Source: a virus
Reading direction: 5' to 3' (one strand)
Length of the DNA stretch: 21,816 nucleotides
Virus record (IMG/VR): IMGVR_UViG_3300023210_002125
Coordinates: 1-21,816 of that record
This document shows, piece by piece, positions 3,799 to 21,748 of this stretch. The notes under the pieces are model-generated. The model was given only the letters and a program-made list of their open reading frames with translations. It was not told the origin of the DNA and searched no databases. The stretch's first letter is position 1. The number at the start of each line of letters is the position of its first letter. The translations under genes were made by a program, and so were the position numbers.

Positions 3799-3950
3799 AT
3801 GGAGAGACTTGAAAAACCCTGGTGGAGTCATTATGACCCTTTTATGAGTTTACGGCATCTCTCAAATGCCGTTGGTGCGGGTGGGTTACTACCGTCCAGT
3901 TTCTTGCTTCTGGTCAAAGAGCAAGTGGCGTGCATGGCAAGACCTTATAA
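3799..3950 (+). CDS. Small CxxC protein whose frame requires a -1 shift at 3843
   Basis: ATG 3799 starts MERLEKPWWSHYDPF. At 3837-3843 the bases are CCCTTTT, read as C CCT TTT, an X XXY YYZ slippery heptamer. Staying in frame gives a hydrophobic, rare-codon product that runs through the terminator to 3984. Slipping back one base gives YEFTASLKCRWCGWVTTVQ and so on, ending TAA 3948-3950 exactly at the foot of the terminator. The -1 product (50 residues) has CRWC, a zinc-binding half-site, and codon use like its neighbours. No start codon exists in the -1 frame downstream of its stop at 3834 before the CxxC motif. Either programmed frameshifting, a one-base deletion in the T-run, or a sequencing error. 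Confidence 0.6.
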
Positions 3951-15632: not shown

Positions 15633-15766
15633 AGTTAAGAAATCAACACATTTCTTAACTGTTCTTAACACCCCTCAAACCAAGACCTCTAGGGTGTCTA
15701 AACACGTCTTTCATATCCTAGACTTAGGGTGTCTAGGAAATAGTAACTCCACCATTCCCTGATGGT
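15633..15766 (+). promoter_or_regulatory. Structured psbA leader with three hairpins
   Basis: Hairpin 1: a perfect 11-bp stem, AGTTAAGAAAT (15633-15643) / ATTTCTTAACT (15650-15660), loop CAACAC; TTCTTAAC is repeated at 15662-15669, allowing an alternative pairing. Hairpin 2: CCTAGAC (15717-15723) / GTCTAGG (15731-15737). Hairpin 3: ACCAT (15751-15755) / ATGGT (15762-15766). AGGGTGTCTA occurs twice (15691-15700, 15726-15735). There is no Shine-Dalgarno before ATG 15788. The leader of about 160 bases probably controls mRNA stability or translation (inference). Confidence 0.6.
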
Positions 15767-15787: not shown

Positions 15788-17090
15788 ATGGCAACAACTC
15801 TTTCAAGGCAACAATCTACATCTCCATGGCAGAATTTCTGTGAGTGGGTGACATCAACTAACAATCGTTTATATGTTGGTTGGTTCGGTGTACTGATGAT
15901 CCCAACACTGTTGGCAGCAACTACTTGCTTCATCGTTGCATTCATCGCAGCACCACCCGTCGATATTGACGGTATTCGTGAACCCGTAGCAGGTTCACTC
16001 ATGTATGGCAACAACATCATTTCTGGTGCAGTTGTCCCAAGTTCAAACGCAATCGGTCTCCACTTCTACCCAATCTGGGAAGCAGCATCACTCGATGAGT
16101 GGTTGTATAACGGTGGTCCTTTCCAATTGGTAGTCTTTCACTTCCTTATCGGCATCTATGCTTATATGGGACGTGAATGGGAACTCTCATATCGTTTAGG
16201 TATGCGTCCATGGATCTGTGTAGCATATTCTGCTCCAGTCGCTGCTGCGAGTGCAGTATTCCTCGTCTATCCTTTCGGTCAAGGTTCTTTCTCCGATGCT
16301 ATGCCTCTTGGTATTTCTGGTACTTTTAACTACATGCTTGTATTCCAGGCAGAACACAACATCCTTATGCACCCGTTCCATATGCTCGGTGTTGCTGGGG
16401 TATTCGGTGGATCTCTTTTCTCTGCTATGCATGGAAGTCTGGTTACATCTTCACTCGTTCGTGAGACGACTGAAACTGAGTCACAGAACTATGGTTATAA
16501 GTTCGGTCAAGAAGAAGAAACATACAACATCGTCGCAGCACATGGCTACTTCGGTCGTTTGATCTTCCAATATGCTTCATTCAACAACTCACGTTCCTTG
16601 CACTTCTTCCTTGCTGCATGGCCCGTTGTTGGCATCTGGTTCACTGCTCTTGGTGTATCCACGATGGCATTCAACCTCAATTGGGGTCCCGTCCTAGCAA
16701 TTTGACGGTAAACTTTGGGTGAATTGCTGGAAGCCCTCCTAAATGGGTAATCAGCAGCCAAGTCCAAGACGCTTCTTGGAAAGGTTCAGAGACTAGTCGG
16801 TTTTCCAAGCGTGGAATGTAATACGACACTAGCGCCCAACATCCTTCTGGGATGAAGATATAGTCCACTCCTTAAAGATGGTAAATTTAAGGGTTCAGTG
16901 CAATGGTTTCAACTTTAACCAATCAATCCTTGACCATCAAGGTCGTGTGTTGAACACTTGGGCGGACATTCTTAACCGAGCAAATCTTGGTTTTGAGGTA
17001 CTCCATGAAAGGAATGCCCACAACTATCCTTTGGATTTGGCAGCCGTTGAAGCAACTCCTGTTGCTCTTACTGCCCCTTCTATTGGTTAA
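15788..17090 (+). CDS. psbA: Photosystem II D1 protein, interrupted by a group I intron (exons 15788-16677 and 16901-17090)
   Basis: The joined exons (890 + 190 bases) encode 359 residues, full D1 length. The conserved C-terminal half spells [12 protein letters not shown] across the junction; the first exon read on alone stops at 16703-16705 in intron sequence. Key residues are all present at standard numbers: Tyr161 and Asp170 (redox-active Tyr and manganese ligand), His190, His198 and His215, then HERNAHN with His332, Glu333, His337, then Asp342 and Ala344. Residue 130 is Glu (high-light D1 form). A C-terminal extension after LDLAA would be cut by CtpA. The product replaces damaged host D1 in thylakoids and keeps photosynthesis running. 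Codon use is more GC-rich than the flanking genes, as expected for a host-derived gene. Confidence 0.97.
16678..16900 (+). mobile_element. Group I intron, 223 nt, in psbA
   Basis: The boundaries are set by the D1 reading frame and the group I rules: the exon 1 end is T at 16677 and the intron's last base is G at 16900. The bases CAAT are shared at both ends, so only frame plus the U/omega-G rule fixes the site. P1 is ACCU (16674-16677) with GGGU (16684-16687), with the U-G pair at the splice site. GTAATCAGCAGCCAAGTCC (16747-16765) is P4-P6-like. GACTA (16791-16795) can pair with TAGTC (16861-16865) as P7, and AAGATATAGTCC (16855-16866) is a classic group I S element. No protein is encoded within. 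Confidence 0.93.
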
Positions 17091-17177: not shown

Positions 17178-17696
17178 ATGAGAACCACGAAGATTTGTAG
17201 AACCTGCACCAAAGAACTTCCTACTTCTGATTTTAGAGAAGGTCGTAGAAGGTGTATGAGATGTGAAACAAAAAATTATTCTGAAAACTGGGCGAGTAAA
17301 ACTCATATTACTTGCAATAAATGTGGTGTAGAAAAACTGATTTCTGATTATTACAAAGGCCATAAAAGATGTAAGGAATGTTATAGTAAAGATTATAAAG
17401 ACAAAAAACCTTCCTATGATAATAAAAAGGACTATATGTTGAAATATACCTACGGTGAAGATTTTGGATTAGAGCAATATAAAAACATTTTACGAGAACA
17501 GAATGAAGTATGTGCTATTTGTTTTAATCCAAATACTAATGGTAGAAAGGATAGTAATAACCTTTATGTGGACCACGACCATAAGACTGGAAAAGTTCGT
17601 GGACTACTCTGTAGTAACTGCAATCGTGCACTGGGTCTGGTAGGAGACAACACCCAAACTCTCCAAAGTATGATAGAATATCTACAAGAGAACTGA
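17178..17696 (+). CDS. Free-standing Endo VII/HNH-type homing endonuclease-like protein (F-CphI-like)
   Basis: 172 residues. The N-terminal half has two CxxC...CxxC zinc modules (C7/C10/C26/C29 and C46/C49/C65/C68). The C-terminal domain reads VCAICFNPN (111-119), then LYVDHDHKTGKVRGLLC (129-145) and SNCNRALGLVGDN (146-158), the Endonuclease VII (beta-beta-alpha metal) signature with DHDH. F-CphI of cyanophage S-PM2 has the same domain and place, directly behind an intron-containing psbA, and cuts intronless psbA. The first CxxC modules probably bind DNA. Inference: it spreads the psbA intron or itself in mixed infection. A plain phage junction resolvase is less likely given the zinc modules and place. 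Confidence 0.88.
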   Translation: MRTTKICRTCTKELPTSDFREGRRRCMRCETKNYSENWASKTHITCNKCGVEKLISDYYKGHKRCKECYSKDYKDKKPSYDNKKDYMLKYTYGEDFGLEQYKNILREQNEVCAICFNPNTNGRKDSNNLYVDHDHKTGKVRGLLCSNCNRALGLVGDNTQTLQSMIEYLQEN

Positions 17697-20767: not shown

Positions 20768-20809
20768 TAAATATTAATATATTAAGGACTCTTGGGGAGT
20801 CCTTTTTTT
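20768..20809 (+). repeat. Terminator-containing repeat, copy 1
   Basis: About 41 bases starting TAAATATTAAT match 21708-21748 at 34 positions, the differences being mostly in the hairpin loop. The pair brackets the Asn/Gln-rich gene. Confidence 0.7.
20784..20809 (+). terminator. Factor-independent terminator
   Basis: An 8-bp stem AAGGACTC (20784-20791) / GAGTCCTT (20797-20804), loop TTGGG; T-run to 20809. Confidence 0.92.
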
Positions 20810-20820
20810 GTGGAAAGCAC

Positions 20821-20849
20821 TTGACACCTCACCCGTAATGCCTTATAAT
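20821..20849 (+). promoter_or_regulatory. Perfect consensus sigma-70 promoter
   Basis: TTGACA (20821-20826), 17-base spacer, TATAAT (20844-20849). The expected start is about 20856, giving a 33-base leader before ATG 20889. Confidence 0.93.
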
Positions 20850-20888: not shown

Positions 20889-21698
20889 ATGAAAACCAAA
20901 GTATTTTTGTCTACTCTTGCAATCCTCGGAACTCTAACCACTCCTGTTTTTGCATCTGGTCAAACCATTAAAAATGGTAACGATGTAGAAAATACTAATC
21001 GCAATAAAGTAGAAAATACCAATCGTAACTCCATTGATAATAGCAGCGATAATATCAATCGAAATCGCAATAAGAACGACAACTTTAATAGCAACACTGC
21101 TGACAACAGCAATCGTAATCGTAATAGTGCTGATAATACCAACAGCAATAGTCAAGGTCAACTTCAAGGTCAAGGACAGTTGCAGGGTCAAGGTCAACTC
21201 CAAGGTCAAGCACAACAAGCTACCTCTGACCAAGGACAAGATCAATCTCAACAAGCTTCCTCCAGTCAGTCTCAAACCTCTGCTAATAACGGAAACTCTC
21301 AAGGAACATTTGTTGATGCTTCAAACCGTAGCACCAACACCTATGTTGAACTTCCAGAAGCAGCAGTAGCACCTCTTCCTGTTGGGAATGCTGGTAGTGG
21401 TGGTATTGGTGATATTGTAGTTCCTTTGCCTGGTTTCCAAGTTGGTGCTTTCTATTCCAATGATGACAATGCTGGATATGGGAGTGGTACAAGTCGTAAT
21501 GCTACTGGTGTAACTGCTGGTTTCAGTGTTCCTCTTGGTGCTGGTGAGTTTCGTGAAGCAGCACGTAATGAGGTTCGTCGTCGTGCAGCATCTCAACGGA
21601 TTCAGTTAATCAAAGAAGCAGTATGGCTTCAGCAAAATGATATTGAAGTCACTGCTGAAGCATTCCCCGAACATTATGCTGCAATGGGTCTTGATTGA
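20889..21698 (+). CDS. Exported Asn/Gln-rich repeat protein, 269 residues
   Basis: The N-terminus MKTKVFLSTLAILGTLTTPVFA is a clear signal peptide with cleavage likely after residue 22. Residues about 30-88 are asparagine-rich with tandem VENTNRNK/VENTNRNS (33-48) and NRNRN units. Residues 90-107 are three exact GQLQGQ hexapeptides, followed to about 140 by Gln/Ser-rich sequence. The C-terminal half is ordered: LPVGNAGSGGIGDIVVPLPG, FQVGAFYSNDDNAGYG, and a basic helix with EFREAARNEVRRRAASQRIQ. The composition is prion- or amyloid-like and could form a surface or extracellular assembly. No family is recognised. It has its own consensus promoter and terminator. Confidence 0.88.
   Translation: MKTKVFLSTLAILGTLTTPVFASGQTIKNGNDVENTNRNKVENTNRNSIDNSSDNINRNRNKNDNFNSNTADNSNRNRNSADNTNSNSQGQLQGQGQLQGQGQLQGQAQQATSDQGQDQSQQASSSQSQTSANNGNSQGTFVDASNRSTNTYVELPEAAVAPLPVGNAGSGGIGDIVVPLPGFQVGAFYSNDDNAGYGSGTSRNATGVTAGFSVPLGAGEFREAARNEVRRRAASQRIQLIKEAVWLQQNDIEVTAEAFPEHYAAMGLD
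21156..21209 (+). repeat. Three tandem 18-base units encoding GQLQGQ
   Basis: The units at 21156-21173, 21174-21191 and 21192-21209 encode the identical hexapeptide while differing at synonymous third bases, so the peptide rather than the DNA repeat seems to be kept. Confidence 0.9.
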
Positions 21699-21707
21699 TA
21701 TAAAAAC

Positions 21708-21748
21708 TAAATATTAATGTAATAGGGACTCTGAATGAGTCCTTTTTT
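21708..21748 (+). repeat. Terminator-containing repeat, copy 2
   Basis: The copy begins TAAATATTAAT and matches 20768-20809. CTAAATA (21707-21713) at its edge also fits the late-promoter motif. Confidence 0.7.
21724..21748 (+). terminator. Factor-independent terminator
   Basis: Stem GGACTC (21726-21731) / GAGTCC (21737-21742), extended by A-T and G-T pairs, loop TGAAT; T-run to 21748. Confidence 0.9.

What the first reader, a model, noticed from the sequence alone, without database searches (positions are those of the whole stretch)
20889..21698. Secreted Asn/Gln-rich, prion-like phage protein with GQLQGQ repeats
A signal peptide, a long N-rich then Q-rich low-complexity region with exact hexapeptide repeats, and an ordered C-terminal domain. 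Synonymous differences between repeat units imply selection on the peptide. Such composition is typical of amyloid or adhesive proteins and unusual in phages. It is driven by a perfect promoter, so it is probably made early.
Basis: partly seen in the sequence, partly recalled or inferred. Interest (0 to 1): 0.66.

Follow-up and report, generated by a model that had tools for sequence, protein, structure and literature searches.

The report
Exported cyanophage protein with disordered N/Q spacer
A cyanobacterial virus carries a self-contained gene for a small exported protein made of a loose, variable Asn/Gln-rich arm and a conserved end domain that is distantly related to an exported protein family found in most marine cyanophages; it is more likely a host-envelope accessory protein than a prion, and its function is still unproven.

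Summary
ORF 20889-21698 (269 aa) has a Sec-type signal peptide, an N-rich then Q-rich stretch (36 N/Q in 80 residues), three in-register GQLQGQ units with different codons, and a conserved C-terminal domain. It sits alone between two terminators, behind a perfect sigma-70-type promoter.

The prion/amyloid reading is not supported. Relatives keep the signal peptide and C-domain (dN 0.13 against dS 1.7) but change the middle: one close relative has one repeat instead of three, and the Makaravirus proteins fall below the N/Q threshold. Such composition is not unusual here: prion-like domains are reported as enriched in cyanophages, and exported QGQ-repeat proteins occur in unrelated phages.

New: the C-domain is distantly homologous to the T4-GC235 / Syn9 gp165 family (phrog_848/1755), exported proteins of T4-like and T7-like cyanophages (profile score 39.9; 0 of 200 shuffles). 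Complete genomes of S-N03, S-H34 and MA10 have the window-type protein but lack GC235-237; a close relative of the window phage has both.

Best reading: a moron-like exported envelope protein whose disordered arm is a spacer and whose C-domain is the working part. Superinfection blocking, or another change to the host envelope, is the leading but unproven function.

The parts
20784..20804 (+). Intrinsic terminator upstream of the gene (ends the preceding transcript)
   Evidence: stem of 9 pairs then T run
20821..20849 (+). Sigma-70-type promoter TTGACA-17-TATAAT, 12 of 12
   Evidence: same site in L003 and L004; 11/12 in S-N03 and 10/12 in L014 at a similar distance from the ATG
20889..21698 (+). 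Gene for the 269-aa exported protein
20889..20954 (+). Sec signal peptide, residues 1-22 (MKTK / VFLSTLAILGTL / TTPVFA)
   Evidence: read from sequence; layout kept in all relatives
20955..21152 (+). N-rich disordered half, residues 23-88 (24 N; 17 charged of 66)
   Evidence: AlphaFold pLDDT below 50
21153..21206 (+). Q-rich repeats, residues 89-106: three QGQLQG units, GQLQGQ at 90, 96 and 102
   Evidence: one GQLQGQ only in L004
21207..21329 (+). Q/S/N-rich linker, residues 107-147
21330..21695 (+). Conserved C-terminal domain, residues 148-269 (LPEAAVAPL...IGDIVVPLP...GVTAGFSVPLGAGEF...)
   Evidence: dN 0.129 / dS 1.717 against L005; distant homology to GC235
21432..21461 (+). Putative amphipathic strand 1, residues 182-191 GFQVGAFYSN
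   Evidence: inference from alternation of residues; not modelled by AlphaFold
21507..21542 (+). Putative amphipathic strand 2 with the PLGAG motif, residues 207-218 GVTAGFSVPLGA
   Evidence: inference; G-V-x-x-G-x-x-x-P-L-G-A-G is invariant in all six aligned members
21540..21635 (+). C-terminal helix, residues 218-249
   Evidence: the only long confidently predicted element
21724..21744 (+). Intrinsic terminator downstream
   Evidence: stem of 8 pairs then T run

Best explanation
The gene is a self-contained accessory ('moron-like') unit with its own sigma-70-type promoter and terminator. It makes a protein that the host Sec pathway exports to the periplasm or outer membrane. Residues 23-147 are a disordered, hydrophilic spacer or bristle whose length and make-up drift freely. 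The conserved C-terminal domain (148-269) is the working part. It is a remote, cysteine-free relative of the exported T4-GC235 / Syn9 gp165 family and probably docks on or in the host envelope. Shown here: ORF, signal peptide layout, terminators and promoter match, a low-complexity region that varies between relatives, purifying selection on the C-domain, profile homology to GC235. Inferred: disorder, export, envelope docking through an amphipathic hairpin, early timing. Most likely function (inferred, about 1 in 3): changing the surface of the infected cell, for example by blocking a second phage from adsorbing.
For: Signal peptide layout in every member. C-domain dN 0.129 against dS 1.717. 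The low-complexity part differs in length and composition between members. AlphaFold leaves residues 1-220 without confident structure, with confidence only in helix 218-249. Promoter and two terminators enclose the gene alone; promoter-like sites at a similar distance in S-N03 and L014. Two different genome positions: beside psbA / plastocyanin / talC / psbD in the window's relatives, and beside the sliding clamp in S-N03, MA10 and S-H34. C-domain profile against GC235 profile: score 39.9, E 2.2e-5; 0 of 200 column shuffles reach it, best shuffle 20.4. In one relative's contig the C-domain profile also matches the GC235 gene (E 4.5e-4). An Acaryochloris plasmid protein bridges the two families. 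Profiles of GC236, GC237, OEP and the phrog_20531-type C-domain do not match.
Against: No member of either family has a known function, and no proteomic or expression data for this gene were found. The homology to GC235 rests on 47 aligned columns and an alignment of only six related sequences, and the window protein lacks the GC235 cysteines. The GC235 family was chosen for comparison after it had been seen by eye and through the plasmid bridge. Export and disorder are predictions. Surface blocking is inferred by analogy with exported exclusion proteins of other phages (own knowledge), not from this sequence. L005 has a late-promoter-like TATAAATA in place of the sigma-70 site.
Confidence: 0.5

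Rival explanations
1. Lysis or envelope-disruption accessory protein: the C-domain works like GC235, whose genes sit with exported GC236/GC237 and, in T7-like cyanophages, right behind a small DUF6450 protein that looks holin-like.
For: Cassette order in P-RSP2, P-SCSP1u, P-SSP3 and Syn9; DUF6450 and DUF6322 assignments; complete genomes of S-N03, S-H34 and MA10 lack GC235-237 but have the window-type protein, as if it stood in for them.
Against: The window gene stands alone and not in a lysis cassette. The window's close relative (L004 contig) has both the full GC237-236-235 cassette and this gene. 'Holin-like' is by eye only; no PHROG or Pfam function. Its sigma-70-type promoter is not a late promoter.
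Confidence: 0.2
2. Functional amyloid, prion-like or adhesive surface protein: the N/Q region self-assembles after export.
For: 36 N/Q in 80 residues, above the usual 30 in 80 cut-off (the cut-off is own knowledge); regular QGQ units; prion-like domains enriched in cyanophages.
Against: N/Q density is not conserved: 24 in 80 in MA10 and S-H34. GQLQGQ repeats vary from 3 to 1 to 0. N half 26% charged, 2 aromatics and 9 I/L/V/M in 125 residues.
Confidence: 0.1
3. The C-domain is a miniature outer-membrane efflux protein (TolC/OEP-like) hairpin-helix module that oligomerises into an outer-membrane pore or plug.
For: Pfam OEP is a sub-threshold hit for 5 of 6 members, best E 0.0073; strand-strand-PLGAG-helix order resembles the TolC hairpin.
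Against: Below the gathering score; no match of the profile to TolC, CusC or MdtP or to solved structures; GC235 members do not hit OEP; AlphaFold gives no strands.
Confidence: 0.1
4. Minor virion-associated protein (decoration or tail) displayed through a flexible arm.
For: Many cyanophage hypothetical proteins turn out to be virion proteins (PMC3037559).
Against: Signal peptide; own sigma-70-type promoter; in S-N03 and MA10 next to the sliding clamp, among replication genes; no report found.
Confidence: 0.1

Closest known systems
Direct relatives: uncharacterised proteins of Synechococcus phages S-N03 (QIN96738.1), S-H34 (QIN97022.1), MA10 (WVP99986.1)
   Same: Signal peptide, low-complexity N-part, C-domain 43-48% identical; upstream sigma-70-like site 9-11 of 12
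   Different: N-part rich in G/N/R rather than N then Q; no GQLQGQ; a different genome position
T4-GC235 / Syn9 gp165 family (phrog_848, phrog_1755), in an exported-protein cassette of T4-like and T7-like cyanophages
   Same: Signal-peptide-like start; G[VF]-x(5)-PL motif followed by a helix; profile match 0 of 200 shuffles
   Different: GC235 has invariant cysteines and a cassette with GC236/GC237; the window protein has no cysteine, stands alone and does not hit the PHROG models directly
phrog_20531-type QGQ proteins of phages of Proteobacteria (for example Achromobacter phage JWAlpha JJJB_0025)
   Same: Architecture: signal peptide, G/N-rich then QGQ-rich stretch, compact C-domain
   Different: C-domain has conserved cysteines; profile comparison not significant
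Acaryochloris sp. 'Moss Beach' plasmid pMB09 protein WP_235113136.1
   Same: C-domain similar to all six members (single-pair E 1e-5 to 1e-12) and to phrog_1755 (E 3e-6)
   Different: Plasmid-borne, with cysteines and no N/Q-rich region; only E 0.05 in a whole-collection search

Membership tests
T4-GC235 / Syn9 gp165 (phrog_848/1755) | Hits the family profile directly | tested here: not met
   No hit of the window protein or its C-domain to either PHROG; phrog_1755 not found in the window at E up to 10
T4-GC235 / Syn9 gp165 (phrog_848/1755) | Profile-level homology of the PL-motif-plus-helix region | tested here: met
   hhalign score 39.9, E 2.2e-5, 0 of 200 shuffles; C-domain profile finds GC235 in L005's contig, E 4.5e-4
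T4-GC235 / Syn9 gp165 (phrog_848/1755) | Invariant cysteines | tested here: not met
   Four invariant Cys columns in the GC235 alignment; the window protein has none
T4-GC235 / Syn9 gp165 (phrog_848/1755) | Next to GC236/GC237 | tested here: not met
   The window gene stands alone; in L004's contig the cassette lies elsewhere (7.8-9.4 kb against 34.4 kb)
Prion-like / functional amyloid protein | At least 30 N/Q in 80 residues | tested here: met
   36 of 80
Prion-like / functional amyloid protein | Composition kept across homologues | tested here: not met
   MA10 and S-H34 only 24 of 80; GQLQGQ repeats 3, 1 or 0
Prion-like / functional amyloid protein | Forms amyloid fibres | not testable with these tools
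   Needs a bench assay; PLAAC was not on hand
Outer membrane efflux protein (Pfam OEP, TolC) | Pfam gathering score reached | tested here: not met
   13.1 bits against 22 for the window protein; 5 of 6 members sub-threshold, best E 0.0073
Outer membrane efflux protein (Pfam OEP, TolC) | Profile similarity to known OEPs | tested here: not met
   hhalign probability 0.5%; hmmsearch not significant
phrog_20531 QGQ proteins | Homologous C-domain with conserved cysteines | tested here: not met
   hhalign E 0.03 over 10 columns; window protein has no cysteine; S-N03 hit E 4.7e-4 covers the biased N-part
Superinfection-exclusion protein | Blocks a second infection when expressed | not testable with these tools
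   Bench test needed

The most novel reading that the evidence does not exclude
Phages of Gram-negative hosts have repeatedly built the same device: an exported protein with a disordered N/Q/G-rich bristle (QGQ repeats) and a small conserved docking domain (cyanophages, phrog_20531-type phages), used to coat or remodel the envelope of the infected cell. In cyanophages its docking domain belongs to the same superfamily as the near-universal GC235 exported protein.
Probability: 0.25. Interest if true: 0.65.

Novelty: new variant of a known kind. Interest (0 to 1): 0.36.

Why it matters
GC235 sits in a cassette that Sullivan et al. 2010 (PMC3037559) found in all but one of 16 cyanomyoviruses and suspected of a shared function, yet no function is known. 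Linking a second, free-standing exported protein to it, in phages that lack the cassette, gives a small, single-gene handle on what exported cyanophage proteins do to the host envelope. It also shows that the eye-catching N/Q repeats are the variable part, so prion-domain scores in cyanophages may mark disordered spacers rather than prions.

Tried and rejected
Two genome-contig scans with the C-domain found no relative among about 85,000 prokaryote species. The profile search of solved structures had no credible hit. AlphaFold on the full protein (mean pLDDT 43.5) and on the C-domain (54.1) gave only the helix, so no fold search was run on low-confidence models. Homology to phrog_20531-type C-domains looked good by eye but failed the profile test. 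The OEP/TolC idea failed direct tests. Further viral-contig scans found no new members beyond L002-L005 and L014. The genome search cannot draw relatives for a virus record, so cyanobacterial hosts could not be searched that way. No paper in the library mentions DUF6322 or DUF6450.

Full report
Observation. The window is a 21.8-kb virus record that carries psbA, a high-light-inducible-like gene, a ferredoxin-like gene, a PstS-like gene and sugar-nucleotide genes; these names are read from the ORFs. The finding's ORF, 20889-21698, is real and encodes 269 residues. Residues 1-22 read as a Sec signal peptide ending VFA. Residues 23-88 are N-rich, 89-147 Q/S-rich, and 148-269 of ordinary composition. 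The region holds 36 N/Q in 80 residues, against 9-13 in seven other ORFs checked. GQLQGQ occurs three times in register with different codons, and 2 of 5000 shuffles reach as many exact hexamers. The gene has a 12/12 sigma-70-type promoter at 20821-20849 and is enclosed by terminators at 20784-20804 and 21724-21744. Four more perfect promoter matches exist in the window, two of them inside other ORFs, so the match alone is weak evidence.

Relatives. Close relatives lie in IMG/VR contigs L002, L003 and L004 (96-100%), L005 (75%) and L014 (45% in the C-domain). Eight records of Synechococcus MW02 phages (S-N03, S-H34, MA01, MA10, MC09, ME01) hold more distant ones, matched only from residue 140 on. 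All are annotated as hypothetical. The signal peptide and C-domain are kept; the middle is not. L004 has one GQLQGQ, L005 has two plus other QGQ repeats, L014 has GQLQGQGQVQGQ after a glycine-rich stretch, and MA10 and S-H34 have mostly G/N/R-rich sequence with 24 N/Q in 80. In the C-domain the window and L005 differ by dS 1.72 and dN 0.13. So selection acts on the C-domain, and the repeats look like tolerated variation in a spacer. The gene lies in two different places: near psbA, plastocyanin, talC and psbD or near the sliding clamp. That fits a mobile, self-contained unit. A sigma-70-like site 59-69 bases before the ATG recurs in L003, L004, S-N03 and L014; L005 instead has TATAAATA, the T4 late consensus.

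What the C-domain is. Direct Pfam, PHROG and PDB searches give nothing significant. A weak plasmid hit, an Acaryochloris protein (E 0.05), itself matches phrog_1755 (E 3e-6) and matches all six family members pairwise. phrog_1755 and phrog_848 are the T4-GC235 / Syn9 gp165 family, with matches in 461 phage records, nearly all cyanophages. A profile of the C-domain against a profile of 11 GC235 proteins scores 39.9 (E 2.2e-5, probability 76%). None of 200 column shuffles exceeds 20.4, the reversed profile scores 12, and control profiles (GC236, GC237, OEP, phrog_20531-type) score 12-18. In the L005 contig the C-domain profile finds the GC235 gene as its only other match (E 4.5e-4). I take the two domains to be distantly homologous, centred on G-[VF]-x(5)-PL followed by a helix. 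The window protein is not a GC235 member: it has no cysteine, no direct profile hit and no cassette.

Distribution. The complete genomes of S-N03, S-H34 and MA10 lack GC235, GC236 and GC237 at this sensitivity but hold the window-type gene. The L004 contig, a close relative of the window phage, and L005 hold both. Sullivan et al. 2010 (PMC3037559) describe the GC235 cluster as present in all but one of 16 cyanomyoviruses and suspect a shared function.

Architecture in other phages. Some are exported proteins with the same layout: signal peptide, N/Q/G-rich QGQ stretch, compact cysteine-bearing C-domain. Several belong to phrog_20531, also found in Achromobacter phages JWAlpha and JWDelta. Their C-domains do not match the window family by profile, so the likeness may be convergent. 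Together with the report that prion-like domains are enriched in cyanophages (PMC5694896), this removes 'unusual in phages'.

Mechanism. Anatomy suggests an exported protein whose C-domain acts at the envelope and whose disordered arm gives reach or a hydrophilic coat. Two stretches, GFQVGAFYSN and GVTAGFSVPLGA, alternate small and hydrophobic residues like amphipathic strands, and a sub-threshold OEP hit in 5 of 6 members (best E 0.0073) points the same way. Direct OEP tests failed, and AlphaFold shows only helix 218-249, so this stays a lead. Given the lone transcription unit with a host-type promoter, envelope modification such as superinfection blocking is my first choice (about 1 in 3). 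A role in lysis, shared with GC235, comes second.

Verdict. The sequence feature is real; the prion interpretation is weak; the new content is the family link. Interest is moderate.

Noticed in passing
window 16668-16892: psbA is split by a group I intron (Rfam RF00028, 87 bits) with no room for an endonuclease gene inside; a free-standing endonuclease-VII-type gene lies just downstream (17178-17693). L003 has an uninterrupted psbA and a different endonuclease gene.
   Followed up: partly
window 3844-3939 and 15656-15751: wcaG RNA ahead of the GDP-sugar genes and PhotoRC-II RNA ahead of psbA.
   Followed up: no
window, whole: 18 sigma-70-like sites with at most 2 mismatches against 6.5 expected, five of them perfect; two perfect ones lie inside ORFs (12822, 13800).
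   Followed up: partly
L015 2671-4318 (Syn9 gp167-165) and equivalents L016-L025: The GC237-GC236-GC235 cassette of exported proteins recurs in T4-like cyanophages, and a GC236-GC235 pair in T7-like ones (P-SSP3, P-SCSP1u, P-RSP2). GC236 and GC237 are paralogues (hhalign probability 96.6), and Syn9 gp166/gp165 overlap by 166 bases in different frames as annotated.
   Followed up: partly
L019 3152-3406, L023 2166-2405, L005 1015-1320: A small DUF6450 protein (phrog_721) with hydrophobic stretches, holin-like by eye, sits directly ahead of GC236 in T7-like cyanophages.
   Followed up: partly
L005 1497-3483: psbA in this relative is broken into several pieces, with an endonuclease-like ORF (2118-2807) between exon pieces, suggesting more than one intron.
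   Followed up: no
L034, L044, L051, L067, L082, L099, L135, L146: Exported QGQ-repeat proteins with cysteine-bearing C-domains in unrelated phage contigs, several in phrog_20531; function unknown.
   Followed up: partly
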